From positions 1 to 64,000 of IMG/VR virus record IMGVR_UViG_3300011116_000834: a stretch of DNA of 64,000 bases. One strand, 5' to 3'. The notes under the pieces are model-generated. The model saw nothing but the letters and a program-made list of their open reading frames with translations. It ran no database searches and was not told where the DNA came from. The position numbers and the translations under genes were made by a program. Origin of the DNA: a virus. Below are positions 5,718-20,638 of this stretch, piece after piece; the stretch's first letter is position 1; the number at the start of each line of letters is the position of its first letter.

Positions 5718-5750
5718 AAAAACCCCCCATTGCTGGGGGGTTTTGTTTTA
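5718..5750. terminator. Bidirectional terminator
   Basis: AACCCCCC pairs with GGGGGGTT, with A-rich sequence on the left and TTTTGTTTTA on the right. It ends the minus-strand gene 6248-5748. Confidence 0.85.
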
Positions 5751-6248
5751 TTGATCAACTGCAAATATGGGAATTTCACCCACATCACCCAATCCTCCTA
5801 CTCCGAGGAATGGATATTTCGGTATATTCGGAATTAATCCAAATAGAGAGTTTAAATCGTTTGATGTATCGATCCCTGCATTTACTATGCTTCTACCATT
5901 AATGGATCTTATGAATCTATTTTGTCCAGACAATGTTCTCTTTTGCATTTTTCCAGTGTTTAGATTGAAGAACCATACTGTTGGACGAACAACATAACCA
6001 GATCCAGTGCTATGGGAATAGTTTGGCATGTTAAGAGGTGAATCTGGTGAATTCGCTGGTATTGCTGGACCAATGTTCAAGTTTCCGTTTTCATTTACAA
6101 CCCAATAGAAGTCGTTGCCATCCAGAAACCATTTACCTCCACCATTGGGTGGATATTCCGATGGTGGGATATTATCCATATTAAGGTCTTCATTCAATAA
6201 GGATTCGATTAATCTTTCTCTGATTCTATTTTTCATTTGATCGTGCAT
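5748..6248 (-). CDS. Putative internal head protein, capsid-targeting N-terminus
   Basis: A 166-residue protein. Residues about 1-21 form a basic amphipathic helix ending SLLNE (MHDQMKNRIRERLIESLLNE), the form of T4 internal-protein propeptides cut after (L/I)-x-E by prohead protease gp21. The rest is Pro-, Gly- and Asn-rich with GGGKWFLDGNDFYWVVNENGN, a Trp/Tyr/Gly motif shared with neighbours. The function of the mature part is unknown; packaging into the head is inferred from the N-terminus. It is alone on the minus strand at the start of the cassette. A TATAAATA box for the rightward genes lies in its upstream region. Confidence 0.7.
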   Translation of the reverse strand: MHDQMKNRIRERLIESLLNEDLNMDNIPPSEYPPNGGGKWFLDGNDFYWVVNENGNLNIGPAIPANSPDSPLNMPNYSHSTGSGYVVRPTVWFFNLNTGKMQKRTLSGQNRFIRSINGRSIVNAGIDTSNDLNSLFGLIPNIPKYPFLGVGGLGDVGEIPIFAVDQ

Positions 6249-6262
6249 ATTCTTATATATTG

Positions 6263-6270
6263 TATAAATA
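6263..6270 (+). promoter_or_regulatory. T4-type late promoter
   Basis: An exact TATAAATA. The start codon at 6297 lies 26 nt downstream, with a GAAGGA ribosome binding site between. Confidence 0.7.
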
Positions 6271-6296
6271 TCCTATACAACCTGAAGGAAAAATAT

Positions 6297-6587
6297 ATGA
6301 ACTTAAAAGAATATTATAGAGCAAGATTAAGTAATCTACTCAGCGAAGAAAAAGCGAAAAAGCAAAGTTTGGAAAAACAGTCCGATACCGCATTGGGAGA
6401 TTTGGAGGGTTTGATTGACGATGCGCATGCTAGGATGAAAAGATCTAATGATCCTAGATTCGCTGCGCAGCATAAAACCTTAGCAAACCATTTCATGGAT
6501 GCATGGAATCACCATATGGTCGGTGAATACGACAAGGCAATTGAAGTTGCTCGTCGTGGAATAGCAGCAAAAAGTAAGAAAGATTGA
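6297..6587 (+). CDS. Small helical protein with capsid-targeting-like N-terminus
   Basis: A 96-residue, mostly helical protein. The N-terminus MNLKEYYRARLSNLLSEE is a basic amphipathic helix ending LLSE, as in the putative packaged proteins around it. The remainder has Lys/Glu-rich helices and no recognised domain. A good ribosome binding site (GAAGGA) sets the start. Its stop overlaps the TTG start of the next gene as TTGA, so the two are probably coupled. Confidence 0.7.
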   Translation: MNLKEYYRARLSNLLSEEKAKKQSLEKQSDTALGDLEGLIDDAHARMKRSNDPRFAAQHKTLANHFMDAWNHHMVGEYDKAIEVARRGIAAKSKKD

Positions 6588-7447
6588 ATAGAATTCTAAC
6601 CCAGATATCGTGTGAACTTGCTGCGTCTCCAGAAGAGCATCGCAGCGGTCTCATGCATAGAAGGAATCTTCCACCAGGAACTGGAATGCTCTTTCGGTTC
6701 GATGCACCAGACATTCTATCCTTCTGGGGAAGAAACACTCTCATTCCGCTCGACATTGCATTCATTGATGAGAATGGAATCATAGAGAGCATCGGAGCAA
6801 TTTCTCCACAGTCTCGGAATACCATTCGCAGCAATGGTCCATGTCTATATGCACTTGAGGTTTCTCGCGGAACATTCGATGAGCATGGTGTCCAAATAGG
6901 GAACTTCGTGCAAATGGAAAATAATAAATATGGAGTCGATGTTTCCATATATGAGGCATCAGAAAAAAATTTAAGGGAAAACACATTGAAAAGTTTAAAG
7001 ACTTTACTCAGGCAAAAATTAATAGAAAAGCAATTGTATAGTAATAATGCTCGTATAGAACAATTAAATCCTAACAATACAGGTAATAAAACAGAGGAAC
7101 CTGAATATTCACCTGAAGATCCAAATTGGCCTTCTTGGATTCCTATATTTCCTCCAGACCTTATAGAAAATGGTAGAGATATATGGATATTTAATCCCAA
7201 AGATGGATTATGGCATCATATACTTTATACTGGTTATGATACAATAATAATTAAAGATGAAATCCCATTTGGATTCCCACCAGGTGGTCATCTATATTGG
7301 AGACCAGGTATGGATGAACCTAGATTCCATTGGCCAATTATTGATAATGATAATTCATATGCTACAGAAATTAATTCACCTTCATCTACTCAAACATTAA
7401 AACCCAATTTTAATACATCACAAATAGTAGATACTAAAATAGATTGA
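6584..7447 (+). CDS. DUF192 domain fused to a Trp/Pro-rich segment
   Basis: A 287-residue protein. Residues about 8-110 match DUF192: SGLMHRRNLPPGTGMLFRF, then FWGRNTLIPLDIAFID and a conserved LEVSRGTF region. DUF192 is a small beta-fold found in exported bacterial proteins and archaea; function not settled. Residues about 130-150 (SLKTLLRQKLIEK) look like the capsid-targeting helix seen at the N-terminus of neighbours, here internal. Residues about 175-260 are Trp/Pro/Gly-rich (PNWPSWIPIF, WIFNPKDGLWHHI, YWRPGMDEP). The arrangement suggests two genes joined in frame. The start is TTG, overlapping the previous stop. Confidence 0.75.
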   Translation: MNRILTQISCELAASPEEHRSGLMHRRNLPPGTGMLFRFDAPDILSFWGRNTLIPLDIAFIDENGIIESIGAISPQSRNTIRSNGPCLYALEVSRGTFDEHGVQIGNFVQMENNKYGVDVSIYEASEKNLRENTLKSLKTLLRQKLIEKQLYSNNARIEQLNPNNTGNKTEEPEYSPEDPNWPSWIPIFPPDLIENGRDIWIFNPKDGLWHHILYTGYDTIIIKDEIPFGFPPGGHLYWRPGMDEPRFHWPIIDNDNSYATEINSPSSTQTLKPNFNTSQIVDTKID

Positions 7448-7459
7448 ATTGGAACTATA

Positions 7460-7948
7460 ATGAATCAGCAAATAAAAGATAAAATTAAGCGTAAAATATA
7501 TGAACATCTTTTAAAAGAACAAGAAATGCCTGAGGGGGAGGGCGATGGTTGGCTTGAAGACTGGCCTAACTGGATTCCTCATAATTTATATCCAGCTTCA
7601 GGTCCAGGAGTGGGTCCACATATTCCAATTTGGATTTGGAATCCAGATGATAACACATGGTATCAGGTTTATTATTCACATAATCCTCCAGGATGGGTTA
7701 GAATAATTGAGCAACGACCAGGTGATGTGGGGCACCCACCAAATGGTTTGTTTTGGAAGCCAGGAATGAAGTACCCAAAACTTCAGAATCCCGTACTACC
7801 TCGTATACCACCCACTATACCAAGACCCTCAAAACCATTAACAAATCCAAATCCATGGTATGATCCTAATGGTGAGTTTCCTTGGAATACACCATGGGAT
7901 CCGATTCAAAATAGGCCGCTCAAACCACTATCACAGCAACTAGATTAA
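7460..7948 (+). CDS. Putative internal head protein, Trp/Pro-rich
   Basis: A 162-residue protein. The N-terminal basic helix ends in HLLKEQ (about residue 21), matching the (L/I)-x-E cleavage pattern. The body is very rich in Trp, Pro, Gly and Asn, with WIWNPDDNTWYQVYY and GLFWKPGMKYP. These same blocks occur in the second half of the preceding protein, so the two are paralogues in part. No enzyme motif is visible. A terminator follows. Confidence 0.7.
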   Translation: MNQQIKDKIKRKIYEHLLKEQEMPEGEGDGWLEDWPNWIPHNLYPASGPGVGPHIPIWIWNPDDNTWYQVYYSHNPPGWVRIIEQRPGDVGHPPNGLFWKPGMKYPKLQNPVLPRIPPTIPRPSKPLTNPNPWYDPNGEFPWNTPWDPIQNRPLKPLSQQLD

Positions 7949-7954
7949 TACAAA

Positions 7955-7986
7955 CAAATCCCATCGAAAGGTGGGATTTGTTTTTA
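7955..7986 (+). terminator. Rho-independent terminator
   Basis: ACAAATCCCA pairs with TGGGATTTGT and is followed by TTTT. The next gene's late promoter begins at its edge. Confidence 0.85.
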
Positions 7987-7994
7987 CATAAATA
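7987..7994 (+). promoter_or_regulatory. Late-type promoter, 6 nt from the start codon
   Basis: CATAAATA, one base from the T4 late consensus, with 6 nt to ATG 8001. Transcription would start at or next to the ATG. Confidence 0.55.
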
Positions 7995-8000
7995 TGTAAT

Positions 8001-8351: not shown

Positions 8352-9116
8352 ATGGAAAATATAACTCATAAATTTTGGTTGAAACCAGGCGGAACACTTC
8401 ATACTTTTGAAGATAGCATTACGCATCATCATATACATGAGGTTCTTGATCATCCAGAACAATTTGGTACTTCTATTCCCGAATTGACTGCAATTCATCA
8501 AGAAGGCAGAAAAGCAGGAATAGAGTCACATGATATCTCGCATCCTGATTTTACTTGGTCTGAAGGAATCCATAATTTTCTTGCAAAAAAGGGATTCATT
8601 CGTGGGTTAAACAACTCAAATAAACGGAAGAGTAGTTTTGATCTACAGTCGTCAAAGGGTCAACCACACCCAAGTGAATTCGTAGAACATGTTCGTGGTT
8701 TGGTTCAGCATATACCAAAAGACGACAGACCAATTTTAATTCATCTAGATTTTAATCCATTTGCAGATAAGGATGATCCTCATGGAACTTCAGTTGAAGA
8801 ATTTGACGACACTGCTAAAAAATTCTTAGAAGATCGTGGGATAGATAAAAAGCATTATAAAGATACAGGATCGATTCATCTTACAAGTTGGCAGGATATT
8901 CATAAATTTATAGGTGAATCTGGCGGAAAAAGAAGAAGAATTGGTGATATCGATGAACCCAATTCAGTTACAAGTGCTCATGTGCGAAATGCATTAGGTG
9001 CAAATCCAGGAAATGTTCCAAAGGCAATTTGGAATAACATGAGAAATTTTGGAGATTCCTATACTCCAAGCATATTGTCATTTAGATCTTTCCTAAAGGA
9101 AATGTATTCTAAATAA
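8352..9116 (+). CDS. Hypothetical protein, His-rich, with capsid-targeting-like C-terminus
   Basis: A 254-residue alpha/beta protein. The N-terminal part is His-rich (THHHIHEVLDHPEQFG). The central region HIPKDDRPILIHLDFNPFAD and SIHLTSWQDIHKFIGE reads like a Rossmann-type or nuclease-like core, but no family is recognised. The last residues, LSFRSFLKEMYSK, resemble the targeting helix that is N-terminal in the neighbours, which is unusual. Within the packaged-cargo cassette it is a candidate injected enzyme. No ribosome binding site is evident. Confidence 0.7.
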   Translation: MENITHKFWLKPGGTLHTFEDSITHHHIHEVLDHPEQFGTSIPELTAIHQEGRKAGIESHDISHPDFTWSEGIHNFLAKKGFIRGLNNSNKRKSSFDLQSSKGQPHPSEFVEHVRGLVQHIPKDDRPILIHLDFNPFADKDDPHGTSVEEFDDTAKKFLEDRGIDKKHYKDTGSIHLTSWQDIHKFIGESGGKRRRIGDIDEPNSVTSAHVRNALGANPGNVPKAIWNNMRNFGDSYTPSILSFRSFLKEMYSK

Positions 9117-9131: not shown

Positions 9132-9731
9132 ATGGATATAAATCAATTCAAACAATCATTGCAAAATGTTTTCCTAAACGAAAACTCATATAATACCCAT
9201 GATATAAAAGCATGGCAAAGCGGAGTTCGAAGTGCACAACTTTCGGGTAATCCAAATTTCAGAACAGGATTACAAGCACATCCTTTGTTCCATGCTGGAT
9301 ATCAAGCAGGAATGCGTATTGGACCACATGCAGAAGATCCATCTCATATGGCAAATGCAGTAAGTCCAGAAAGACTTCGCTCATATCGGGATTCGACAAA
9401 AATACATGATCATATGGTAGCAAAGGTAGCAGATCACTTTGCTCCTATTCTTGCTGGTCAAGAACCAGATATGATTCCACATTATAAGAATCTAATATCT
9501 TCTCATCTTAATAATCACGAAAGTGGTCAATTCAAATCATCAAAAGATGCAGCAACTGCTGCATTGCAGATCTTTGGCAATCACCCAAACATGAGCAGAC
9601 GCTGGGATGATGTAATTACATCGTGGGAAGGCAGCACACATAATCCAAATTATAGATCTCGTAATTCGCAAGGAAGTCCATTCCGAAATGAGTCTGCTGC
9701 CAATCATTGGTATGCTCATACATTTTTCTGA
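9132..9731 (+). CDS. Putative internal head protein
   Basis: A 199-residue protein. The N-terminal helix MDINQFKQSLQNVFLNEN ends FLNE, the predicted prohead-protease site. The mature part is helical, His- and Ser-rich, and shows no recognised domain (for example KAWQSGVRSAQLSGNPNF, MVAKVADHFAPILAG). It overlaps no neighbour; a GGGA-type purine run precedes the start. Function unknown. Confidence 0.7.
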   Translation: MDINQFKQSLQNVFLNENSYNTHDIKAWQSGVRSAQLSGNPNFRTGLQAHPLFHAGYQAGMRIGPHAEDPSHMANAVSPERLRSYRDSTKIHDHMVAKVADHFAPILAGQEPDMIPHYKNLISSHLNNHESGQFKSSKDAATAALQIFGNHPNMSRRWDDVITSWEGSTHNPNYRSRNSQGSPFRNESAANHWYAHTFF

Positions 9732-9739
9732 GAACACAT

Positions 9740-10849
9740 ATGCTAACATTTAGAAATTTTATCGTTGAATCCGAAGAAAACAAATTATTTCTTGAAGATG
9801 AAAGATTTGGAGATTATCTCGTATATCTTTCTGAAGCACATCTATCTCTACTTTCAGAAGCACAGTTATCATTGAATGTGATAAATCCCCATGGAAACAA
9901 TCAACAAGTTTCATGGGGTAGTGTGAAGCAAGGATTTGATCAGGCATCAAATCGACAACAAAGAAGAAACCTTGCAAGGGAAGCAAGAAAGATTCGTCCT
10001 CAGAATCTACTTGGTGCTGAAGGATCAAATCCAAAACTTGCAAAGGAAGGTGAGAATGTTCCAGAATATGCAACCAAGGGACTTTCACTTACTCCATCGG
10101 ATGAATCTGGAAGAATCAATACTTGTTCATGTGCAACAGAAGAATGTCGCGCTGCTTGCTTGAATAAAGCAGGTCGTGGAGCAATGACATTCACACAAAA
10201 GGCAAGACTTGCGCGAACCAACTTCATGTTGGATCATCCTCAGCATTTCATGTCAATGCTTCATGATGAAATCGATGCACATGAAAAATCAGCAACCAAG
10301 AAGGGCAAGAAAGCAGCAGTTCGTCTGAACATCGTTTCCGATATTCCTTGGGAAAAACTACATCCTGAAGTCTTCAGTCAACATCCAAATACTCAGTTCT
10401 ATGATTATACCAAGATTGCAGGAAGAGTATTAAATCCAGATGGATCTAAGAAGCAACTTCCTTCAAATTATCACCTGACATTCTCTTCCACGGGTATACA
10501 TGATCGTGGAAACTGGGATGATGCAAGAAAGCATCTTGACAATGGTGGAGTCGTCGCAATGGTATTCAAAGTACCAGCAGCAAGAAATGGAAAGAAAGGT
10601 GGAGATCTTCCCACTCATGTAGTAGACCAGAAGACTGGAAAGAAGTATAGAGTAATTGATGGAGATCTTCACGATCATAGACATCTGGATCATGTTTATA
10701 ACGATGCATCACCAGATGAAGGATTGATTGCTGGTCTTCGTATCAAAGGTGGAAGGAAGATGGCAGAGAAAGCAGGAGATTTTGCTGTTTCCACAACTCC
10801 TGGACAAGATCATGTTGTTGTTCCAGATATTCAAAGGAAGAAAAAATGA
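9740..10849 (+). CDS. Conserved phage protein with CxC/YDYTK motifs, capsid-targeting N-terminus
   Basis: A 369-residue protein. The N-terminus MLTFRNFIVESEE has the short targeting pattern (FIVE). From about residue 105 it matches a family widespread in phages (I recall it as DUF7227-like): GLSLTPSD, INTCSCATEECRAACLNKAG, an AR-x-x-RT-NFML segment, VRLNIVSDIPWE, FYDYTKIAGR and VIDGDLHDHRHLD. The clustered Cys and the Asp/His end suggest metal binding and perhaps nucleic-acid processing, but the reaction is not known. The start at 9740 is preferred over one at 9707, which would overlap the upstream gene. Confidence 0.75.
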   Translation: MLTFRNFIVESEENKLFLEDERFGDYLVYLSEAHLSLLSEAQLSLNVINPHGNNQQVSWGSVKQGFDQASNRQQRRNLAREARKIRPQNLLGAEGSNPKLAKEGENVPEYATKGLSLTPSDESGRINTCSCATEECRAACLNKAGRGAMTFTQKARLARTNFMLDHPQHFMSMLHDEIDAHEKSATKKGKKAAVRLNIVSDIPWEKLHPEVFSQHPNTQFYDYTKIAGRVLNPDGSKKQLPSNYHLTFSSTGIHDRGNWDDARKHLDNGGVVAMVFKVPAARNGKKGGDLPTHVVDQKTGKKYRVIDGDLHDHRHLDHVYNDASPDEGLIAGLRIKGGRKMAEKAGDFAVSTTPGQDHVVVPDIQRKKK

Positions 10850-11568
10850 ATTACGAATTTAAAAATAAATTAAAAGCAAGATTGTATGAACAATTATTGA
10901 ATGAACAAATCGCCAAACCAATAAAAAACATTTTAGTAGATCCTTCTTTATGGATACCATGGATTAAGGGAATATTCAGAACGGATATAGAGCGTTTCGG
11001 TGTGCGTTTATTTTCTAATAAAGAAACTATTCAACGATTTCTTGGTAGAACTCTTACTGCTGAAGAAATGGCAGCAATGAGAGCAAATGGTACTTGGGAA
11101 AGATATCAGAATGCTTATAGAGATTCTACTGAATTCTGGCATATAATTGAAAATTGGGGAGGTGTAGGAAAATTTGGACTTAATAATTTTGATAATTTCT
11201 ATCTAACTCAGGAAGGTAGATATTTTGTACAAAATATAGAAAATGGAAAATGGTATGGTGTAGGAGTAAGAGGATATCCAAATCCCAGTCCTCCACCAGC
11301 AACTCTTGTTAGACTTTATCCAGAATTTGAAATGCCACCAGGCTGGAAACCAGGAATGGACTATCCTCATGATGTTGGAGGTGGGTCAGGAGTTGGAACA
11401 ATGAGAAATCCTAATAATGAAGAAATGGGACATGGAGTTGGAATCATTCGTAATGGACCTGGACCTGGATCTGGATCTGGACCTGGATCAATACCATCAG
11501 GTGAAAGACCAACTGAAGATCGTGGAATAGATCCATGGAATTCAGATACACCCTTTCAACAAGCATAA
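10846..11568 (+). CDS. Putative internal head protein, paralogue 1 of a Trp/Pro family
   Basis: A 240-residue protein. The N-terminal basic helix ends EQLLNEQ (about residue 20). The middle is a helical region, then a beta unit GRYFVQNIENGKWYGVGVRGY, then EMPPGWKPGMDYP. A Gly/Pro/Ser linker leads to the C-terminal tag EDRGIDPWNSDTPFQQA, shared with the proteins at 12729 and 13458. The ATG overlaps the previous stop as ATGA, with AAGGAAG upstream. Confidence 0.75.
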   Translation: MNYEFKNKLKARLYEQLLNEQIAKPIKNILVDPSLWIPWIKGIFRTDIERFGVRLFSNKETIQRFLGRTLTAEEMAAMRANGTWERYQNAYRDSTEFWHIIENWGGVGKFGLNNFDNFYLTQEGRYFVQNIENGKWYGVGVRGYPNPSPPPATLVRLYPEFEMPPGWKPGMDYPHDVGGGSGVGTMRNPNNEEMGHGVGIIRNGPGPGSGSGPGSIPSGERPTEDRGIDPWNSDTPFQQA

Positions 11569-11620: not shown

Positions 11621-12679
11621 TTATTCATACCATAGATCTGGTTTTCTTCCCCCTCTTGGTCGTTCTGGTCTTTGGGGTTCAATAGTTCTTACACTATCGT
11701 CTATCCACCATTCAGCACCTTCCGCTGGATTCTTTATCCATTGTCTATTTTCTCTATCCCAATAAAATGTATTTGGAGTATATCCTCGTATTAATCTCCA
11801 TTGTCCTCTATATTGTTCATATGCAGGATTTTGGATATAACGCCAATGACCCCCTTCGACATCCCATACCCATCCATCTGGCGGATGTGCATCTGGCGTT
11901 CCTTCTCCAGGCATACCCCATCCCCATGGATGCATTCCATGAACATATGGATTTTCATAACTTTCATCACCTGGATGTGATGTATATTGCCATCCTCTAT
12001 CTTCATAATACTGTCTGAATATATTATTAAGTGTTCCATCGGGATCTCTATAATCTAGTGGTGGAGCAGCTTCTTCGGGGGTCATTGGACCACCTTCGCG
12101 TAATCTCATTATTACTAATAGCATTCCAGCAATTCCCCACATCTGATTTCTAAATTTATCCGATAGTAAATATGCCATTGTTCCATCAGGATCCCATTGA
12201 CCACCTCCTTGATATAAATGTCTATGTTCATATAACCAATCAAATAAATCTTCAGCAGTACGAACTCCAGGAGCTAAGTGATCTCTTGTATTCATGCAAA
12301 GTTCTAATAAACTATGAGCTTTACGATAATAATCATGTCCAATTGGTGGAGGCCATGATACATTTGGTGGCCATCCTGGTGGAGCAAATGGAGGGTATGG
12401 AACAGGTGGTACTCTACCATTAGGATCAAATAACCAAGGCCATGCCGATGGGGGATTACCACTTCCATCCCATGAACCCCATCCTCCAAAATTTTCATCA
12501 GCAGATGGAGTCTGCCATGGATGCATTCCATGGAATCTATCCATCCAACCTGGTGGTGCATCTGGTGTTGCTTGTTGAGATCCTTGACCAATATTATATT
12601 CACCAGTATCTTGTGTTCCTAATGAATTGGGATCAGTGATTTCAAGAATAACTTTATAATGATTAGCTAGTTTTTTCAT
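11621..12679 (-). CDS. Large Trp/Pro/Gly-rich protein on the opposite strand
   Basis: A 352-residue protein. The short N-terminus MKKLANHYKVILEI ends VILE, the targeting pattern. Most of the chain is low-complexity Pro/Trp/Gly with repeated HGMHPW units and GHWRYIQNPAYEQYRGQW. A helical insert lies at about residues 115-205 (KAHSLLELCMNTRDHLAPG, FRNQMWGIAGMLLVIM). No enzyme family recognised. It is a single minus-strand gene within plus-strand neighbours, with its own late-type box. Confidence 0.7.
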   Translation of the reverse strand: MKKLANHYKVILEITDPNSLGTQDTGEYNIGQGSQQATPDAPPGWMDRFHGMHPWQTPSADENFGGWGSWDGSGNPPSAWPWLFDPNGRVPPVPYPPFAPPGWPPNVSWPPPIGHDYYRKAHSLLELCMNTRDHLAPGVRTAEDLFDWLYEHRHLYQGGGQWDPDGTMAYLLSDKFRNQMWGIAGMLLVIMRLREGGPMTPEEAAPPLDYRDPDGTLNNIFRQYYEDRGWQYTSHPGDESYENPYVHGMHPWGWGMPGEGTPDAHPPDGWVWDVEGGHWRYIQNPAYEQYRGQWRLIRGYTPNTFYWDRENRQWIKNPAEGAEWWIDDSVRTIEPQRPERPRGGRKPDLWYE

Positions 12680-12728: not shown

Positions 12729-13448
12729 ATGTTTTATAAAAATCAAAATAAACTCACAGAACAAAATCGCAATTTATTGCAAAAAGGATTATTAAATAAA
12801 TCCTTTAAAAATAATAAAATTGATTTAAATGAACAATTAGCACCAAAAGGAAAAATGTATCAATGGCTTTTGGACAAAGTGCCAAGAGGAATATGGCATC
12901 CACTCATAGAACCTGGATGGGGGATATTCAAAATGTGGGAATCTACGGTGGAACGAGAATTACTTTCCATGACTCCCGAAGAATTTGCAGCATTATCAGA
13001 TGCAGCAAGAGCAGCATATAATGCAAGAAGGGCTGAAGCTATAAAATGGAGAGAAACTGCTGCTCTTTTAAAGCAAGAACGAAGGGGAATGTGGACTAAA
13101 TTTTTCACAACAAAAGACGGTAGAGTAATTGCATATAATGAAACAGAGGGAATATGGTATGGGTTAAGCAAAGAAGGATATAGGCGTCCCGATGGAACAA
13201 TTTATTATAGACCAGAACCAAGATTTCCAATGCCTGAAGGTTGGAAACCAGGAGATCAACCTCCCAACTTTACAGATACTCATCCAGTAGGACTAGGACC
13301 TGCTCCTTTATATAGTGGTGGAACAATCAATGTTGGCGACATAAACGATGATAGATTAGATACATTTGGTCCAGCAAGAGCTACTCCACCAACAGAAGAT
13401 CGTGGAATAGATCCATGGAATTCAGATACACCCTTTCAACAAGCATAA
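12729..13448 (+). CDS. Putative internal head protein, paralogue 2 of the Trp/Pro family
   Basis: A 239-residue protein. The N-terminus is longer than in its paralogues and ends KIDLNEQ (about residue 37), again (L)-x-E. It then shows the family features: a helical region with EREL and TAALLKQE, the unit GRVIAYNETEGIWYGLSKEGY, FPMPEGWKPGDQPP, and the C-terminal tag EDRGIDPWNSDTPFQQA. A GGAG ribosome binding site precedes the ATG. Confidence 0.75.
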   Translation: MFYKNQNKLTEQNRNLLQKGLLNKSFKNNKIDLNEQLAPKGKMYQWLLDKVPRGIWHPLIEPGWGIFKMWESTVERELLSMTPEEFAALSDAARAAYNARRAEAIKWRETAALLKQERRGMWTKFFTTKDGRVIAYNETEGIWYGLSKEGYRRPDGTIYYRPEPRFPMPEGWKPGDQPPNFTDTHPVGLGPAPLYSGGTINVGDINDDRLDTFGPARATPPTEDRGIDPWNSDTPFQQA

Positions 13449-13457: not shown

Positions 13458-14177
13458 ATGAAAACAGATATTGCATCATTAAAGATATTACTAGAGAAAA
13501 AATTAAATGAAAAATTTAATTTACAAGAACAAACACCAAATTTCTGGAAAGGTCAGTGGTGGAGACCATTACGAGATGTTATTTATCCAAATCATCTTGG
13601 TCAGCGTCCATGGGAAGTTGTATCTCATTGGATAAAGGGTGAAGGAATGAGATTATGGGAAATGACCGAAGCTGAAATTCAGGCTCTATTACAGCAATAT
13701 AGAGAAAGAAATGATTTAGAGGGATATTCTAGAATTATAGGTCAATTGGTGAAAGATAAAAAATATATTACTTTAGCACGCGAATTAGAAGAATCTATGG
13801 TTGGATCACATTTTACTGAATTTACCATAACTAAAGATGGTAGATGGATAGCATTTAATGAAACAGATGGTAGATGGTATGGAATTGGAAAGATACAACA
13901 TGGATGGAACCAAGTTGTAGATGGAAGAGGTACAACAAATAGAGTTCCAGCATACACACACGAACCAAGATATCCAATGCCTGAAAATTGGAATCCAGGA
14001 GATCCAATTCCATATAGTCCACCACAACCAGGATCAAATAATGTAATTAGTCCAGGAATTGGTTCCAATAATCCATATGATGATTTTGATCATTTGGGTA
14101 GTACTCCCGCAGGTTCACCAACTGGAGATCGTGGAATAGATCCATGGAATTCAGATACACCATACCAACAAGCATAA
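13458..14177 (+). CDS. Putative internal head protein, paralogue 3 of the Trp/Pro family
   Basis: A 239-residue protein, same length as the preceding one. The N-terminal helix ends FNLQEQ (about residue 24). Shared blocks are GRWIAFNETDGRWYGIGK, YPMPENWNPGDPIP and the terminal tag GDRGIDPWNSDTPYQQA. The DNA of the tag is nearly identical in all three paralogues, pointing to recent duplication or selection on the end. AAGGA lies before the ATG. Confidence 0.75.
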   Translation: MKTDIASLKILLEKKLNEKFNLQEQTPNFWKGQWWRPLRDVIYPNHLGQRPWEVVSHWIKGEGMRLWEMTEAEIQALLQQYRERNDLEGYSRIIGQLVKDKKYITLARELEESMVGSHFTEFTITKDGRWIAFNETDGRWYGIGKIQHGWNQVVDGRGTTNRVPAYTHEPRYPMPENWNPGDPIPYSPPQPGSNNVISPGIGSNNPYDDFDHLGSTPAGSPTGDRGIDPWNSDTPYQQA

Positions 14178-14190: not shown

Positions 14191-15363
14191 ATGAAATATG
14201 ATTTATCAGAAAAAAGAATACAACCACCTAAAGATTTTTGGTGGAATCCAGGAGATGGTGAATATTTTGAAAGACCAGGACCACTAGATCCAATGGATTT
14301 TGATCCAATGGATCCTCCACCCGATCCCACCCATTGGGATTGGGAGATAAAACCAAATGGTATACCGCGCGGAAAGTGGTACGACACGGATACTAGGTAT
14401 AATGGTCCCGAGCGCTTTGGTCCTCGTCCCAATCCATCGAATCCTCCATCATGGTGGGGTGGGACTGCTGCTGCATGGGCAAGATATGCTCATTGGTTAA
14501 TCAGAGGTGTTGCGCTTATTCCATTATTCATAAATCAATCATGTGGAGGCGATTGTCAGGATGGAGTTGTTCCAGGAACCGCCTACCCTTTGCAACCAGG
14601 ATATGGTTGGAGATGGATTAATGATGGAGAATTTCTTAGGTACTACAAACCAGATGGAAATGGTGGATGGGTGGAAGCATCTGATGAAGATATCAACCTA
14701 TTCTTCAATATGCCTGGATTTCCATCTGGATGGTATCAGGGATGGGATCAAAATGGAAAACCTTGTATCTATAAACCAGATGGTACTGTAGCAACAGATC
14801 AAGAAATTCTTGATATTCAAAATAGACATCCAACTCCAGTTGGACCACCAGTAAATACTAAACCAACAGGTCCAGTAGCAAATGAACCAATTCAACTAAC
14901 TGCTCTTGAAGGATATGATCAAATGTCTATGAATAGATTACCAGAAAATAATAAATCTATAAACTTTAAATCATTACTTGAAGCAATTAAAGCAAACAAG
15001 GCAAAGAAAAAACTTGCCATGAGAAACTATACATCTCCAGCTAGTCTTCCTGATTCACCATTAGGTGGAGATAAAAACGCAGGAAATGCAGTTGGTCGTT
15101 CTCGCATAATCAATCAAGCAAAATCAACATGGCAAAGAGATTTCAATACTCGTTCAGCACAAAGAAAAGCAACAGATGCTGCATATACTGCAATGGGCGA
15201 ACCTGCTTCAATTGATCTTTATACTAAAGCAATGAAATTGGTAGCAGCAAAGAAAAGATCTGCACAACAATCTGGATTAGAATTCAATGCACAACATGCT
15301 GGACAAGATCTAATGAGAACTGTTACTTCGGTAAAACCTCATCATGGTGCATATACTTATTAA
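14191..15363 (+). CDS. Large Trp/Pro-rich N-terminus with basic C-terminal domain
   Basis: A 390-residue protein. The first half is Pro/Trp/Gly/Asp-rich (WWNPGDGEYF, GYGWRWINDGEFLRYYKPDGNGGW, MPGFPSGWYQGW). A hydrophobic stretch, HWLIRGVALIPLFIN, lies near residue 105, followed by CGGDC. The last 130 residues are basic and helical (SLLEAIKANKAKKKLAMRNY, AQRKATDAAYTAMG) and look like a separate domain. There is no clear (L/I)-x-E N-terminus, unlike its neighbours, although FKSLLEAIKANK at about residue 265 is similar. Function unknown. Confidence 0.65.
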   Translation: MKYDLSEKRIQPPKDFWWNPGDGEYFERPGPLDPMDFDPMDPPPDPTHWDWEIKPNGIPRGKWYDTDTRYNGPERFGPRPNPSNPPSWWGGTAAAWARYAHWLIRGVALIPLFINQSCGGDCQDGVVPGTAYPLQPGYGWRWINDGEFLRYYKPDGNGGWVEASDEDINLFFNMPGFPSGWYQGWDQNGKPCIYKPDGTVATDQEILDIQNRHPTPVGPPVNTKPTGPVANEPIQLTALEGYDQMSMNRLPENNKSINFKSLLEAIKANKAKKKLAMRNYTSPASLPDSPLGGDKNAGNAVGRSRIINQAKSTWQRDFNTRSAQRKATDAAYTAMGEPASIDLYTKAMKLVAAKKRSAQQSGLEFNAQHAGQDLMRTVTSVKPHHGAYTY

Positions 15364-15452: not shown

Positions 15453-15962
15453 TTAACCATATGGATTTGCATATCCACCAAAGTCAGTTGGTTCGGATCT
15501 TCCACCCATTGGAAGTGATCTTGTTTGATATCCGCTATAGGGATCTACAGTTGGAGGAATGTATCTACCGTTATAATCAGTAGGTTGTGATCTTCTATCA
15601 CCCATTCCTATTCTTCTGTATTGATTACTATTATAATATGGATCTATGATTGGAGGAATTCCACCTTTGTAATCGGTAGGTTGTGATCTTCTATCACCCA
15701 TTCCTATTCTTCTGTATTGTGGAGATCCTGGTGGTAATGGTGAGGGAAATGGACTTGGTGTTGGTTCTGGTCTTGGATCTGGTCTTGGTGGGGATGGTGG
15801 GAAATCAGGTGGAAGATTTGGTGGTCCACTCATTCTTCTAAATGCACCTTGATTGTTGTTGCCACCATAAACTGGTCTGGCATATCCACCGTATCCTTGA
15901 TCTTCTGCGTAACCAATACCCTCGTTGAGCATTTTACGAATTGTTGTAGTTAATGATTCCAT
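15453..15962 (-). CDS. Repeat-containing putative internal head protein
   Basis: A 169-residue protein. The N-terminus MESLTTTIRKMLNEG ends MLNE. A Pro-rich linker (about residues 45-80) is followed by two near-perfect copies of a 32-residue unit containing RRIGMGDRRSQPTDY and a third degenerate copy (SLPMGGRSEPTDFGG). At DNA level 15580-15623 and 15676-15719 are identical. The protein looks unfolded or fibrous and may be cargo or structural. AAAGGA precedes the ATG. Confidence 0.7.
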   Translation of the reverse strand: MESLTTTIRKMLNEGIGYAEDQGYGGYARPVYGGNNNQGAFRRMSGPPNLPPDFPPSPPRPDPRPEPTPSPFPSPLPPGSPQYRRIGMGDRRSQPTDYKGGIPPIIDPYYNSNQYRRIGMGDRRSQPTDYNGRYIPPTVDPYSGYQTRSLPMGGRSEPTDFGGYANPYG

Positions 15963-15994: not shown

Positions 15995-16516
15995 TTACCA
16001 AGTCGATGGATTCCAAAGTTCTCTTTTTGGTGCCCATCGTTCACCAGGTACTGATCCACCTGGTTGTTCTATTGGATGATCTGGACTATCTGGTTTTGGT
16101 GTTCCTTGATGCACCACTCCATCTCCCGCTGGATCAACCCAATTGGATCCAGATGGCTGAATTTGTAGACCAGGACCATTTACAGTAATATCATTTGCTC
16201 CTGAACCATGGCGAACACACCACCAATATAAACCGCCAATTTTTACCCATAATCCACATCCTATACAGTTGGGGGGTATCCATGTAGGCCAATTATATCT
16301 TGGAGTTCCAGGTTCAGTTTCTGTTGGTCCTACTCTTGGTCCAGGATTGGGAGTAATTATTCTCGGACCACCAAGACCACCACCAGATGAACCAGAACCA
16401 GGAGGTCCTGGTGCTCTCACTCGAACTTTACCCCCATATGGATTATTTGGATTGAATTGTTCAGCAAATAATGATTCTACCAATCGTGATCTGATTATAT
16501 TTTTAATATTATTCAT
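15995..16516 (-). CDS. Putative internal head protein, Trp/Pro/Gly-rich
   Basis: A 173-residue protein. The N-terminal helix ends ESLFAEQ (about residue 20). A Gly/Pro/Ser-rich linker leads to NWPTWIPPNCIGCGLWVKIGGLYWW, a Trp/Cys motif like those in neighbours (NWPSWIP), followed by a Pro-rich tail. Not assigned to a family. It belongs to a minus-strand group with 15962-15453 and 17410-16526. Confidence 0.7.
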   Translation of the reverse strand: MNNIKNIIRSRLVESLFAEQFNPNNPYGGKVRVRAPGPPGSGSSGGGLGGPRIITPNPGPRVGPTETEPGTPRYNWPTWIPPNCIGCGLWVKIGGLYWWCVRHGSGANDITVNGPGLQIQPSGSNWVDPAGDGVVHQGTPKPDSPDHPIEQPGGSVPGERWAPKRELWNPSTW

Positions 16517-16525: not shown

Positions 16526-17410
16526 TTATTCCGTTGGATATTGATATTTATCATTATTAGTGGTTTCTTCTTCATCATTTTGTTCATCTGAACTATATTC
16601 AGAATCATAATCCGATTGTAAATTATCTTGAGCAATTAAATGATTTTTAGTATGTACGAGATCTGGAGAATGAAGACCTACATGAGTTAATTTAGAATGT
16701 ATATCGGTAAATCTTTCTTTAGCTCTTAATAAATTTGCTTGTCTGGAAAGATTCATTTTATCTTGCTTTTCCTTTTCTGCCTGCTTATCTTTCCATATTT
16801 GATACCAATTTTTTCCTTGATTTAGATCAGATTCGGTAGTTTTCCACTTTTGCATTTCGCCTTGTGCTTTTTCTAGTTGCTTCTTGAGATTTTGATCTAG
16901 ATTTAGCAAATACATTGCAGGATGCTTATTTACCTGATTTAACAAATGATCAGATGGTGGTTGTTGTGGACCACCCATTTGTGCTGCTCCTTGCGGTTGG
17001 GATTGTGCCTGACCCTGACCAACTCCAGATTGTTGCATTTTACGCATCATATCTGCTGGATTGCCACCAGCACCTGGTTGTTGTTGTTGTTGCTGTTTTT
17101 GCTGCATTGATTCTTGAGTTTCAATGTCTATACCATATAGTTTGGCAAGAGATATTAAATAATCTCTGGAATTCTTCTCTATATTGAAGCCTCCACCACC
17201 ATTGACTGTTCCATTTGCATTTTCTTGACCAGGATTTAGTGCATCCACATAGGGATTATAGATTGGCATATTTTTGGGTTGTCCGACACCAAAGAAATTA
17301 CCACTACCAATTGATATTTGAATTGGAGTTGCTAATGGATCCTGGGGTGGGAGATCCAGGTCTCCCCCTGGTTCTGCTTTTTCTAATATAAATTTCTTAA
17401 ATGATATCAT
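16526..17410 (-). CDS. Gln-rich putative virion protein with capsid-targeting N-terminus
   Basis: A 294-residue protein. The start MISFKKFILEKAEPGGD carries the classic short targeting helix ending FILE. Residues about 110-165 are Gln/Gly/Pro-rich low complexity. A charged coiled-coil region follows (about 170-245, LNLDQNLKKQLEKAQGEM and KDKQAEKEKQDKMNLSRQ), then an acidic tail. The layout (targeting helix, disordered Gln stretch, coiled coil, acid tail) would suit a scaffold or core protein of the prohead, but no homologue is recognised. The start at 17410 fits better than an upstream in-frame ATG. Confidence 0.65.
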   Translation of the reverse strand: MISFKKFILEKAEPGGDLDLPPQDPLATPIQISIGSGNFFGVGQPKNMPIYNPYVDALNPGQENANGTVNGGGGFNIEKNSRDYLISLAKLYGIDIETQESMQQKQQQQQQPGAGGNPADMMRKMQQSGVGQGQAQSQPQGAAQMGGPQQPPSDHLLNQVNKHPAMYLLNLDQNLKKQLEKAQGEMQKWKTTESDLNQGKNWYQIWKDKQAEKEKQDKMNLSRQANLLRAKERFTDIHSKLTHVGLHSPDLVHTKNHLIAQDNLQSDYDSEYSSDEQNDEEETTNNDKYQYPTE

Positions 17411-17481
17411 ATTATTATATATAAATTGTGTTGACAAGGATGTAGATGCTGATAGACTATTGAACAAATAGGAGTATGATT

Positions 17482-17805
17482 ATGAATCACCTAAATATTT
17501 TTGAAATTTATCCAAATTATTCTATTTTATCATTAATTGATGATGATTTTGATGATGATGAATTTGAAGAAGAGGAAGATGATGAGGATCTTGATGATGA
17601 CTTCGAAGACGATGATGACTTCGAAGACGATGAAGATTTTGAAGATGACGATGAAGAAGATTTCGACGATGATGATTTAGATGATGATGATTTAGATGAT
17701 GATGATTTAGATGATGATGATGATGATGATGATGAAAATGGATATGATGATGATGAACATCAAGAATATGAATATGAAACTGATGATGAAGATCCTTATC
17801 GGTAA
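17482..17805 (+). CDS. Extremely acidic Asp/Glu-repeat protein
   Basis: A 107-residue protein, of which about residues 17-107 are almost only Asp and Glu with a few Phe, Leu and Tyr. The DNA is a run of GAT/GAA repeats (for example a 15-base unit encoding DDDDL repeats near 17680-17715). The N-terminus MNHLNIFEIYPNYS keeps an IFE motif. The charge suggests a DNA mimic, a histone-like competitor or a counter-ion for packaged basic proteins; which is unknown. AGGAG precedes the ATG at 17482. The stop overlaps the next start. Confidence 0.7.
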   Translation: MNHLNIFEIYPNYSILSLIDDDFDDDEFEEEEDDEDLDDDFEDDDDFEDDEDFEDDDEEDFDDDDLDDDDLDDDDLDDDDDDDDENGYDDDEHQEYEYETDDEDPYR

Positions 17806-18033: not shown

Positions 18034-18411
18034 ATGCGTGACTATACTATTGAAGTTTTTCTAAATGAAGAGTATGGATATAAGACTTGGATTTGGAATC
18101 CAAATATGGGTGAAGATGAATTCGTTTCATGGTGGAATGATCTAACTGAATCTGATATCATCAAGTATTTTTTCAATATCAAAGCACTTCCAGGCACACT
18201 CAAAGAATATGTGGAAAAGTCCCCAGGAACTGTTTCTGTTAGAGAAACAGGCGATCCAACATCACATCGCCCATATTATTACTGCCATTTCCATGATGTG
18301 AATGATTCCTATATTTCAGTAGGAACAAATAATTATCGCTTCCGCAATCGTTCTCGTTACGATTGGAAGGAGCATTGGTTGGATCATCAATTGAGCAAGA
18401 ACAAGTCTTAA
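18034..18411 (+). CDS. Hypothetical protein with targeting-like N-terminus
   Basis: A 125-residue alpha/beta protein. The start MRDYTIEVFLNEEYGYKT carries FLNE, as in the cassette, although here it may simply be the first strand. Trp- and Tyr-rich (WIWNPNMGEDEFVSWW, HRPYYYCHFHDV). No family recognised. It follows the previous gene by 1 nt and converges on the minus-strand gene at 18408 with a 4-nt overlap. Confidence 0.6.
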   Translation: MRDYTIEVFLNEEYGYKTWIWNPNMGEDEFVSWWNDLTESDIIKYFFNIKALPGTLKEYVEKSPGTVSVRETGDPTSHRPYYYCHFHDVNDSYISVGTNNYRFRNRSRYDWKEHWLDHQLSKNKS

Positions 18412-18692: not shown

Positions 18693-18713
18693 TATATTTC
18701 TCCGTGATACATA

Positions 18714-18721
18714 TATTTATG
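18714..18721 (-). promoter_or_regulatory. Late-type promoter (minus strand) for the gene at 18692
   Basis: CATAAATA on the minus strand, 21 nt before the ATG with a ribosome binding site between. Confidence 0.5.
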
Positions 18722-18937
18722 CAAAAACCAAATTGGCAGGAATTCGACTTTAAGGTGGCAAGCGATTATTCTCATGGAAGTCCTGAATATTATAGGGAAA
18801 CTCTCCGTAATATGATCGGTATGCCTACCAATTTACCTGGAGAGAAAAATGATAATCAAGAAGCAAAACCTAACACGCGAAATATTGGTAAAGTTTTTAA
18901 TGCAGGGAATATGTCAAGTTTCCTTCGAAAAACTTAA
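18719..18937 (+). CDS. Small hypothetical protein
   Basis: A 72-residue protein (starts MQKPNWQEFDFKVASD) of uncertain fold with a helix at YYRETLRNMIGM. It overlaps the next gene by 89 nt, which is long, so one of the two starts may lie elsewhere. No ribosome binding site is apparent. Confidence 0.45.
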   Translation: MQKPNWQEFDFKVASDYSHGSPEYYRETLRNMIGMPTNLPGEKNDNQEAKPNTRNIGKVFNAGNMSSFLRKT

Positions 18938-19283
18938 GGATGGAACCAATCGTATTCTTCTTTGCACCCTAGAACCATCGCTGATTCCTAGCAATTATCT
19001 CAGTAGTGTTAGGAAAGTGCTGGCACCATCGGGAAACACGGATATACTGCCTGTATGGGAAGTCAGTGAGGGTAAATGGAAAAGTTTCAAGATATCAAAC
19101 TTGAACGATTTCAGAACTCCCGATGAATTGCTAACTGCTGATAAACCAGGTCAGGATCTTGATTCAAATCAAAAGCAGATTATTGAAAAACTCAAGAAAG
19201 ATGCAGAGAAGAAGTTTCAAAAACTTGTGGCAGAACTAAAGCAAGAAGCCTTAGACGCAAAGAAAAAATTAAATGGAGAATAA
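18849..19283 (+). CDS. SH3-like beta-barrel protein (DUF2693-like) with coiled-coil tail
   Basis: A 144-residue protein. Residues about 10-85 match the same family as the gene at 3362: helix, GICQVSFEKLKDGTNRILLCTL, then WKSFKISNL. The C-terminal 50 residues are a charged coiled coil (IIEKLKKDAEKKFQKLVAEL) absent from the early paralogue. GGAGAG lies before the ATG at 18849. Function unknown; the tail suggests oligomerisation. Confidence 0.7.
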   Translation: MIIKKQNLTREILVKFLMQGICQVSFEKLKDGTNRILLCTLEPSLIPSNYLSSVRKVLAPSGNTDILPVWEVSEGKWKSFKISNLNDFRTPDELLTADKPGQDLDSNQKQIIEKLKKDAEKKFQKLVAELKQEALDAKKKLNGE

Positions 19284-19285
19284 TT

Positions 19286-19450
19286 ATGAATACCCCAGAT
19301 CGTGAAGTACTAATGAAGCATCGGGCAAAGAAGCGCAAGTGGACTGCAAAGAATCAAGCATCACTTGCTAATGCGAAGAAGAAGACTCTAGAAGATCTTT
19401 ATAAGCAAGGTCGTCTTCCCAAGGCATTCTTTTCGCGGATTGGTGTATGA
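19286..19450 (+). CDS. Small basic protein
   Basis: A 54-residue, Lys/Arg-rich protein (starts MNTPDREVLMKHRAKK, ends FFSRIGV). The charge suggests nucleic-acid binding. GGAG precedes the start and the stop overlaps the next ATG as ATGA. Not recognised. Confidence 0.65.
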   Translation: MNTPDREVLMKHRAKKRKWTAKNQASLANAKKKTLEDLYKQGRLPKAFFSRIGV

Positions 19451-19953
19451 ACATATTCGTTCTTGATGAAAATCCGCATATCGCAGCACATATGATGTGT
19501 GACAAGCATGTGGTAAAGATGATCGTGGAGGGATGTCAAATGCTCTCCACGAATCATCGTTTATCTGGCAGTCATGTTGTGTATGCGCCTATCAATTTGT
19601 ACAAGCAATCATTTCAAAATCACCCATGTACCATATGGGCGAGGCAGACTACCGATAATTATTTTTGGTTAGCAGAGCATACTCACGAATTATCGCTTGA
19701 GTATACTCGTCGTTACAATAAAATTCATTTGTCACATGCCATGACTGAATGGTTTAGATTTCATCCTCCTTTACAAATTCCAAGAGGAGATTTAACACCA
19801 TTTGCTCAGGCAATGCCAGAGGAATTTAAAGTTCCTGGGGATGCTGTTGCTGCGTATCGTAAATATTACATTGGGGCAAAGTCAAAGTTTGCTAAATGGA
19901 AATACACAAATCCTCCAGATTGGTACTTGACACGATCTGGAATGCTGGTATAG
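19447..19953 (+). CDS. Conserved phage protein, possibly a DNA-repair glycosylase-like enzyme
   Basis: A 168-residue protein. MNIFVLDENPHIAAHMMCDKH, VVKMIVEGCQMLSTNHR, HPCTIWARQTTDNYFWL and VPGDAVAAYRKYY are characteristic of a family common in T4-like cyanophages. Members are annotated either as hypothetical or as pyrimidine-dimer glycosylase-like; I cannot confirm the activity. Conserved Asp, His, Cys and Trp residues point to an enzyme. Full length. Two tRNA genes follow. Confidence 0.65.
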   Translation: MNIFVLDENPHIAAHMMCDKHVVKMIVEGCQMLSTNHRLSGSHVVYAPINLYKQSFQNHPCTIWARQTTDNYFWLAEHTHELSLEYTRRYNKIHLSHAMTEWFRFHPPLQIPRGDLTPFAQAMPEEFKVPGDAVAAYRKYYIGAKSKFAKWKYTNPPDWYLTRSGMLV

Positions 19954-19965
19954 TTGACATATAAC

Positions 19966-20039
19966 GCCTCCTTAGCTCAGTTTGGTAGAGCTGCAGACTT
20001 TTAATCTGTAGGTCGTAGGTTCAAATCCTACAGGGGGTA
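19966..20039 (+). tRNA. tRNA-Lys (anticodon TTT)
   Basis: A complete cloverleaf. The acceptor GCCTCCT pairs with AGGGGGT, the anticodon loop is CTTTTAA, and the T-loop has the TTCAAAT pattern. CCA is not encoded. Reads AAA/AAG. Confidence 0.92.
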
Positions 20040-20042
20040 TTT

Positions 20043-20114
20043 GCGAGCGTAACTCAGCGGTAGAGTCTCGGTTTTCCAAACCGATGGTCGAGGGTTCGAA
20101 TCCCTTCGTTCGCT
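20043..20114 (+). tRNA. tRNA-Gly (anticodon TCC)
   Basis: A complete cloverleaf. GCGAGCG pairs with CGTTCGC, the anticodon loop is TTTCCAA and the T-loop TTCGAAT. CCA is not encoded. Reads GGA. Confidence 0.92.
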
Positions 20115-20115
20115 T

Positions 20116-20286
20116 ATGAATGACAATAGACGACATGCAGCAGGAAAGGGAGATAAACCCCGTGAGGTTGACTACCAAAAATGGTCAGATAACTGGGATA
20201 AAATCTTCGGAAAGAAAACAAATGGCAAGCGATGCAGAAGTAAAATTTTATCTAGAAAGAAAAAAGATGCTGGAAAAGATTCTTGA
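20116..20286 (+). CDS. Small conserved phage protein (MNDNRRHAAGKGDKPR type)
   Basis: A 56-residue, very basic protein. Its start, MNDNRRHAAGKGDKPR, followed by DYQKWSDNWDKIFG, is a pattern I recall from many T4-like phages. Function unknown; probably nucleic-acid or protein binding. The ATG lies directly after tRNA-Gly, so it is read from the processed tRNA transcript. It overlaps the next small gene by 65 nt in another frame. Confidence 0.7.
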   Translation: MNDNRRHAAGKGDKPREVDYQKWSDNWDKIFGKKTNGKRCRSKILSRKKKDAGKDS

Positions 20287-20350
20287 ATCAAATAAAGAAT
20301 ATCAGCATTATATGATTTTACTGGATTATAATAAAAATGGAGCAGATTGA
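20222..20350 (+). CDS. Small helical protein
   Basis: A 42-residue, Lys/Glu-rich helix (starts MASDAEVKFYLERKK). GGAAAG lies before the ATG. It is probably real, as a downstream overlapping gene, but too short to classify. Confidence 0.5.
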   Translation: MASDAEVKFYLERKKMLEKILESNKEYQHYMILLDYNKNGAD

Positions 20351-20374
20351 TTTACATCAATTTGTCTATAATAT

Positions 20375-20638
20375 ATGAAAATTTCAAATTTTTTCAAATT
20401 ATTCTTAAATGAAGAAGATCCCCAACAGGTTCGTCTTTATAAGGAAAGATTGACCGAATGTATTCTTATTCAACTTCCAAAGGAAGCAAATAAAGGTGAT
20501 TTGAAAGAACTTCTTCATATTTCTCAAGTTATTTCGGATATGCAGAAAAATTCTGCAATTATTATTCCAGATTCTTGGAAAATTAGTAAAATTTCTGTTG
20601 ATGTTTCTCTCGGTGTTTATGTAAAACCCCAGGATTAA
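20375..20638 (+). CDS. Hypothetical protein with targeting-like N-terminus
   Basis: An 87-residue protein. The start MKISNFFKLFLNEEDPQQ shows the short basic helix ending FLNE seen in the putative packaged proteins. The rest is helical with a beta C-terminus (VDVSLGVYV). No family recognised. It stands apart from the main cassette, so its inclusion among packaged proteins is tentative. Confidence 0.6.
   Translation: MKISNFFKLFLNEEDPQQVRLYKERLTECILIQLPKEANKGDLKELLHISQVISDMQKNSAIIIPDSWKISKISVDVSLGVYVKPQD

What the first reader, a model, noticed from the sequence alone, without database searches (positions are those of the whole stretch)
5748..20638. A large cassette of proteins with prohead-protease-type N-terminal propeptides
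At least 14 products begin with a short basic or amphipathic helix ending (L/I/F/V)-x-E: SLLNE, LLSE, HLLKE, KLQE, FLNE, FIVE, QLLNE, VILE, DLNE, NLQE, MLNE, LFAE, FILE, plus FLNE at 18034 and 20375. The rest of each sequence differs. T4 internal proteins are directed into the head by such a leader and cut by gp21 after (L/I)-x-E. This would be an unusually large set of packaged, injected proteins.
Basis: partly seen in the sequence, partly recalled or inferred. Interest (0 to 1): 0.88.

Follow-up and report, generated by a model that had tools for sequence, protein, structure and literature searches.

The report
Phage arsenal of capsid-tagged injected proteins
An uncultured T4-like phage and its relatives carry a block of a dozen or so unrelated proteins that share a short detachable tag like the one phage T4 uses to load proteins into its head, so the tag probably marks a large kit of proteins injected into the host, and it can be used to find more of them.

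Summary
Confirmed in substance, with corrections. The window is bases 1-64000 of a 108-kb uncultured T4-like phage record that encodes a gp21-type prohead protease, gp22 and gp23. In the 5.7-17.5 kb block, 8 of 16 genes begin with a strict leader (hydrophobic-x-x-hydrophobic-hydrophobic-x-Glu, Glu at residue 8-24) against 6 of 98 elsewhere (P = 5e-5; shuffles give 0.7). In T4 the stricter Glu-10 form picks exactly IPI, IPII and IPIII. Its fixed positions (4, 7, 8, 10) are those reported to matter for targeting and cleavage of T4 IPIII. Relatives carry the same kind of block at the same place with different bodies. Among 81 leader-bearing proteins found by a DNA pattern there are 44 unrelated bodies, including SAM lyase, ADP-ribosyltransferase, RNA-ligase and methyltransferase types. 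A cyanophage enzyme with this leader (S-SM1 cytidyltransferase) is reported in purified virions. So: T4-type capsid-targeting leaders on an unusually large, exchangeable set of packaged, probably injected proteins. Corrections: 18034 is probably not a leader, 20375 is uncertain, the amphipathic-helix claim fails, and three proteins may carry the leader internally or at the C-terminus. Packaging, cleavage and injection remain untested in this phage.

The parts
5748..6236 (-). Leader protein, MKNRIRERLIESLLNE^DLNMD; Trp/Pro/Gly-rich body (longer start possible at 6248)
   Evidence: strict motif
6297..6587 (+). Leader protein, MNLKEYYRARLSNLLSE^EKAKK; late-promoter-like TATAAATA upstream
   Evidence: strict motif; first 37 aa resemble L318 1237; TATAAATA
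6584..7447 (+). DUF192 domain followed by a body related to that of 7460; possible degenerate leader (..LLRQKLIE^KQLYS) between them
   Evidence: PF02643 E 6.8e-26; body 36% identical to 7460 over 81 aa; the leader reading is by eye
7460..7948 (+). Leader protein, MNQQIKDKIKRKIYEHLLKE^QEMPE; Trp/Pro-rich body
   Evidence: strict motif; significant similarity to 10846 only over the first 21 aa
8001..8342 (+). Probable leader protein, MDFTKYYKFKLQE^QLINP; Pro-rich body
   Evidence: same YYKxxLxEQL class as G015 35382 and 36015
8352..9116 (+). Protein with the leader-like site at its C-terminus (SFRSFLKE^MYSK)
   Evidence: site aligned in homologues G001 4584, L318 2256 and L317 5047, where another module follows it
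9132..9731 (+). Possible leader protein, MDINQFKQSLQNVFLNE^NSYN
   Evidence: loose motif only
9740..10849 (+). GP88-family protein with N-terminal leader MLTFRNFIVE^SEEN
   Evidence: PF17338 E 7.1e-38; full-length relatives L086-L088; leader found in 3 of 80 GP88 loci by the strict rule, plus L088 by eye
10846..11568 (+). Leader protein, MNYEFKNKLKARLYEQLLNE^QIAKP; C-terminal tail DRGIDPWNSDTPFQQA
   Evidence: strict motif; paralogues 12729 and 13458
11621..12679 (-). Probable leader protein, MKKLANHYKVILE^ITDP; Trp/Pro/Tyr-rich body; TATAAATA upstream
   Evidence: leader class shared with L317 11524 and L320 1792; TATAAATA
12729..13448 (+). Probable leader protein, ..NNKIDLNE^QLAPK; same C-terminal tail
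   Evidence: aligned with 10846 and 13458
13458..14177 (+). Probable leader protein, ..KLNEKFNLQE^QTPNF; same C-terminal tail
   Evidence: aligned with 10846 and 12729
14191..15363 (+). Two-part protein: residues 1 to about 250 Trp/Pro-rich, residues 259-390 homologous to a protein that stands alone with leader MKKFKEILTE in L323
   Evidence: E 4e-9 to L323 3353; E 8e-7 of the N-terminal part to L317 5047
15453..15962 (-). Leader protein, MESLTTTIRKMLNE^GIGYA; repeats GDRRSQPTDY
   Evidence: strict motif
15995..16516 (-). Leader protein, MNNIKNIIRSRLVESLFAE^QFNPN
   Evidence: strict motif
16526..17410 (-). Leader protein, MISFKKFILE^KAEPG; orthologues keep M1, F4, K5, E10 and differ at once after E10
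   Evidence: alignment A5 with L317 8481 and L320 4271
18034..18411 (+). Conserved syntenic marker gene; its FLNE is probably not a leader
   Evidence: N-terminus conserved with the body in relatives
20375..20638 (+). Possible isolated leader protein, MKISNFFKLFLNE^EDPQ
   Evidence: strict motif only

Best explanation
The block encodes about 12-15 head-internal proteins of a T4-like phage. Each is made with a removable capsid-targeting leader, usually at the N-terminus (short form with Glu at residue 10, or a longer form with Glu at about 13-20), sometimes between two modules or at the C-terminus. The leader binds the assembling prohead core, the gp21-type protease cuts after the Glu, the mature body stays in the head and is probably ejected into the host with the DNA, where it acts before phage gene expression, most likely against restriction or other first-line defences or to take over host enzymes. 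Shown by computation: the leader, its enrichment, the protease and matching head-protein sites, conservation of leader against body, and the same leader on many unrelated enzymes. Inferred: targeting, cleavage, ejection and the function of each body.
For: gp21, gp22 and gp23 are present and head proteins carry conserved phi-x-E sites. Enrichment in the window, and over nine records 36/96 block genes against 8/610 others (P 7e-27; block limits were set by eye). T4 positive control recovers IPI, IPII, IPIII, Alt, gp24, gp68; the strict Glu-10 form gives exactly the three IPs in T4. Positions 4, 7, 8, 10 are those found by mutation to govern targeting and processing of IPIII (PMC9026906). Syntenic blocks in relatives with changed bodies. 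In 16526 orthologues F4 and E10 are fixed and the next residues vary. GP88 appears without a leader in most other phages. Near-identical leader DNA on unrelated bodies in G001. Leader search blind to gene content: 44 body clusters in 81 proteins, 50/80 loci T4-like, bodies with SAM lyase, ART, RNA ligase and methyltransferase domains. S-SM1 virion enzyme MKKFSAFLNE.
Against: No virion proteomics for this phage. Only half of the block genes meet the strict motif. The bodies in the window, apart from GP88 and DUF192, match no family, so their function is unknown. One T4-like record (G038/L139) has a GP88 without a leader. The leaders are not significantly amphipathic. The virion detection in S-SM1 shows presence, not cleavage or injection. 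Internal sites are not enriched by count. Block limits were drawn with knowledge of the leaders.
Confidence: 0.82

Rival explanations
1. The proteins are packaged and cleaved but are structural or condensing head-core components (like T4 gp67, gp68, IPIII) rather than injected effectors.
For: The gp67-like and gpX proteins beside gp21 carry the same kind of leader; many bodies in the window are Trp/Pro/Gly-rich without a known domain.
Against: Bodies change between close relatives, unlike core head proteins; in relatives the same leader is on enzymes such as NUDIX, methyltransferase, nucleotidyltransferase, SAM lyase and ART.
Confidence: 0.25
2. The shared N-terminus is a binding tag for another phage complex (replisome, tail or membrane), not a capsid leader.
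For: Short conserved tags with variable bodies can serve any scaffold (inference; no tool result favours this).
Against: Same residues as the proven T4 tag, Glu preferred over Asp and Lys at residue 10, virion detection of a tagged enzyme in S-SM1.
Confidence: 0.06
3. The motif is a chance or compositional product of helix-rich N-termini.
For: The loose L-x-E motif occurs in a third of other genes.
Against: Shuffle and Fisher tests, T4 control, orthologue conservation of F4 and E10, near-identical leaders on unrelated bodies.
Confidence: 0.04

Closest known systems
T4 internal proteins IPI, IPII, IPIII and Alt with their capsid-targeting sequence (Mullaney and Black; reviewed in PMC9026906)
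   Same: Leader pattern with key residues 4, 7, 8 and 10; gp21-type protease with L/I-x-E specificity in the genome; unrelated variable bodies; variable locus between related phages
   Different: T4 has three IPs plus Alt; here 12-15 in one block, two leader lengths, internal and C-terminal leaders, bodies without detected relation to T4 IPs, and phages far from the enterobacterial T-evens
T4-GC190 cytidyltransferase of cyanophages (S-SM1, P-SSM2, Syn9)
   Same: Leader MK(K/S)FSxFLxE on an enzyme body; found in purified S-SM1 virions (PMC3037559)
   Different: Single gene, not a block; the passages of the paper read here do not describe the leader
phiKZ-type giant phage head proteins cleaved by a gp21 relative (PMC10052503)
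   Same: Many head proteins with propeptides cut after a short motif ending in Glu; 19 cleaved proteins in phiKZ and in 201phi2-1; ejected proteins
   Different: Propeptides in SPN3US mostly 111-254 residues, different cleavage motif, largely conserved head proteins rather than an exchangeable set
Polyvalent proteins (PMC5512222)
   Same: Proteins thought to be injected with phage DNA, including ART domains
   Different: Many domains in one chain; here mostly separate small proteins each with its own tag, with a few joined by an internal leader

Membership tests
T4-type internal proteins with capsid-targeting sequence | N-terminal leader with hydrophobic/aromatic residues at 4, 7, 8 and Glu at 10 (or equivalent spacing) | tested here: met
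   9740 and 16526 exactly; six more by the anchored motif with a longer leader
T4-type internal proteins with capsid-targeting sequence | gp21-type protease and scaffold in the same genome | tested here: met
   Peptidase_S77 E 7.8e-38 and Gp23 E 2.6e-138; gp22 at L003 7873-8919 by position and alignment with relatives
T4-type internal proteins with capsid-targeting sequence | Body diverges or is replaced while the leader is kept | tested here: met
T4-type internal proteins with capsid-targeting sequence | Late expression | tested here: inconclusive
   TATAAATA upstream of 6297 and 11621, related octamers upstream of 8001 and 15453; 5 of 19 in G017
T4-type internal proteins with capsid-targeting sequence | Presence in virions, cleavage after Glu, ejection into the host | not testable with these tools
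   Only indirect: S-SM1 enzyme with this leader in virions
T4-type internal proteins with capsid-targeting sequence | Sequence relation of bodies to T4 IPI, IPII, IPIII or Alt (not required of members, since the T4 IPs themselves differ in their bodies) | tested here: not met
   No Pfam or PHROG family for most bodies; only GP88 and DUF192 reach a curated cut-off
GP88 family (PF17338), gene 9740 | Profile match over the domain | tested here: met
   E 7.1e-38, residues 107-329 of the longer ORF
Polyvalent proteins | Several enzymatic domains in one polypeptide | tested here: not met
   At most two recognisable parts per protein here

The most novel reading that the evidence does not exclude
In this phage group the leader is a free-moving module that also sits between two bodies or at a C-terminus, so that gp21 cuts some products into two packaged effectors: a phage 'polyprotein' of injected proteins, built by recombination at near-identical leader DNA.
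Probability: 0.4. Interest if true: 0.78.

Novelty: new variant of a known kind. Interest (0 to 1): 0.62.

Why it matters
Phage proteins that enter the cell with the DNA meet host defence first, but apart from T4 and a few others they are hard to recognise. A ten-residue tag tied to a T4-type protease would let such proteins be found from sequence alone in uncultured phages, and already points to SAM lyase, ADP-ribosyltransferase, RNA ligase, NUDIX and type I specificity-like bodies. It also suggests a ready route by which new proteins are recruited into the head: copy the leader in front of any gene.

Tried and rejected
Loose L-x-E motif as evidence: too common. Amphipathic-helix test: not significant. 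Close relatives of the 10846 body in viral contigs: none. DNA similarity to cultured phages: none. Structure predictions for the 8352 and 12729 families: mean pLDDT 44 and 41, too poor for a fold search. Counting internal leader sites: no overall enrichment (7 in 18,198 aa against 31 in 123,761; P 0.21), so internal leaders rest on individual homology cases. ARAGORN tRNA-Thr at 6012-6095, which would overlap gene 5748, is not supported by Rfam. PADLOC search of the window's own bodies: nothing.
Full report
What the window is. It is bases 1-64000 of a 108,402-base virus record. The record encodes a gp21-type prohead protease (Peptidase_S77, E 7.8e-38) and gp23 (E 2.6e-138), with portal, core and scaffold genes in T4 order. 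The nearest cultured phages by gp23 are marine Synechococcus, Prochlorococcus and Pelagibacter T4-like phages at about 54-56% identity. Host unknown.

The observation. The quoted N-termini exist. The bare L-x-E motif is not enough, since a third of other genes have it in the same place. With the pattern phi-x-x-phi-phi-x-E, Glu at residue 8-24, 8 of 16 genes in 5.7-17.5 kb have it against 6 of 98 elsewhere (P 4.6e-5), and shuffled N-termini give 0.7 on average. One of the outside hits is the gp67-like head-core gene directly before gp21. Pooling block genes of five records and four further loci, a short-form pattern gives 36/96 against 8/610 (P 7e-27); the block limits were set by eye, so the P value is optimistic.

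Why it is a capsid leader. In T4 the same rule recovers IPI, IPII, IPIII, Alt, gp24 and gp68 (the gene names are assigned from my knowledge of T4), and the strict Glu-10 form gives exactly the three IPs. The review PMC9026906 reports that in T4 IPIII residues 4 and 7 matter for targeting, 8 and 10 for processing, and that gp21 cuts after L/I-x-E; these are the positions fixed here. In the 16526 family, F4 and E10 are invariant in three orthologues and the sequence varies directly after E10. Head proteins of the same phage group carry conserved phi-x-E sites: gp23 RSAGNLFE 54/54, TAVLLE 76/76; gp67-like IVNALLKE 37/52.

The leader moves independently of the body. Proteins 7460 and 10846 share 11 of their first 21 residues and no other significant similarity. 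In G001, a relative with 82% gp23 identity, ATGAAATCCTTTAAGCAATWCATTACCGAA is repeated almost letter for letter before unrelated bodies. GP88 proteins in other phages usually start at or near the domain; among 80 loci only L086, L087 and L089 pass the strict leader rule, and L088 carries a longer leader ending ISDVIVE by eye. So the same body occurs with the short and the long leader form, which suggests that the two forms are equivalent. A search of viral contigs for a leader DNA pattern, blind to gene content, gave 81 testable proteins in 44 unrelated body clusters, and 50 of 80 loci have T4 core genes although most are fragments. Body domains include S-AdoMet lyase, ART-PolyVal, HD, RNA ligase, methyltransferase and lytic transglycosylase; in G001 and G017 also NUDIX, nucleotidyltransferase and VanY.

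Blocks in relatives. The marker gene 18034 brought ten loci. Seven were examined, and five of these (L317, L318, L319, L320, L323) have leader genes beside the marker, with both leader forms; L324 and L325 have few or none. G001 carries nine Glu-10 leaders by the strict rule, plus MKSFKQCILE, and its contig is cut inside the block. G017 carries ten. T4 has three, P-SSM2 three, Syn9 one, Cr30 one under the same rule.

External support for packaging. The S-SM1 cytidyltransferase (T4-GC190) begins MKKFSAFLNE^AERS, and PMC3037559 reports its detection in purified S-SM1 virions. This shows presence in virions of one tagged enzyme in another phage, not cleavage.

Internal and C-terminal leaders. Protein 8352 ends ..SFRSFLKEMYSK. 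Its homologues G001 4584 and L318 2256 carry MKSFKQILWE at the N-terminus and FSSFIQE at the aligned place, followed by a type I specificity-like tail (PADLOC E 8e-6 for G001 4584). L317 5047 joins an 8352-like part to a 14191-like part through AFDKLLVE. The last third of 14191 is homologous to a protein that stands alone with leader MKKFKEILTE in L323. G001 7935 contains a complete second leader MKSFKDFLSE ending at residue 256. By count such internal sites are not enriched, so this remains a reading of individual cases.

18034 is probably not a leader, because its N-terminus is conserved straight into the body. 20375 and 9132 are weak. The starts of 9740 and 16526 lie inside longer ORFs and are fixed by orthologues. 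Amphipathicity is not supported. The number of credible leader genes in the window is about 12, or 15 with internal and C-terminal cases.

Prior work. Capsid-targeting leaders on variable internal proteins are known in T-even phages, with at least ten different IPs reported across relatives and anti-restriction roles for IPI, IP2 and IP3 (PMC12373910; PMC9391042). I found no paper in the held library that describes blocks of this size, such leaders outside the enterobacterial T-evens, or internal leaders; most subscription papers are not held. Hence 'new variant of a known kind'.

Noticed in passing
window 1-5700: At least ten copies of a 40-nt element GATTTGC-N17-(C/T)ATACT-NTTGG(C/T)-ATG, seven on + and at least three on -, each ending exactly at the start codon of a small gene. 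The -10-like hexamer lies 6-7 nt before ATG, which suggests leaderless early mRNAs from a repeated promoter.
   Followed up: partly
window about 5700: G+C falls from about 0.50 to 0.37 at the edge of the leader block; L317, L318 and L319 show a similar step beside their blocks, so it is probably genuine and not a chimeric join.
   Followed up: partly
window 20-40, 958-978, 992-1012, 3711-3731: Repeated palindrome of the form TTATCGGACNGTCCGATAA in the early region, a possible operator or terminator.
   Followed up: no
window 4261-4893 and 23276-23980: Two proteins ending in PEP-CTERM-like sorting tails (VPAPASIALLGLAGLIGKRKRN; IPAPATLSMLAVAALVSKKTRRRRN); the first matches PF07589 only below its cut-off (E 0.016). 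May hint at a host with exosortase.
   Followed up: partly
window 17476-17805: Extremely acidic Asp/Glu-rich protein beside the block, present at the same place in G001, L317, L318, L319, L320 and L323; a DNA-mimic candidate.
   Followed up: no
window 11514-11568, 13394-13448, 14123-14177: Three paralogues with diverged bodies end in an almost identical tail DRGIDPWNSDTP(F/Y)QQA; function of the tail unknown.
   Followed up: no
L166 4584-5771: C-terminal module resembling type I restriction specificity subunits downstream of an internal leader site; possible packaged anti-restriction decoy.
   Followed up: partly
window 6012-6095: ARAGORN tRNA-Thr call antisense to gene 5748 that Rfam does not support; tRNAs at 19966, 20043, 22382 and 25025 are supported.
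   Followed up: yes
window 49288-60283: Large tail-region proteins with collagen-like GPTGPTG stretches and repeated Cys-rich CC-x-G-x-C modules.
   Followed up: no
window 19447-19953: Pyrimidine dimer DNA glycosylase family match (PF03013, E 3.9e-9) near the block.
   Followed up: no
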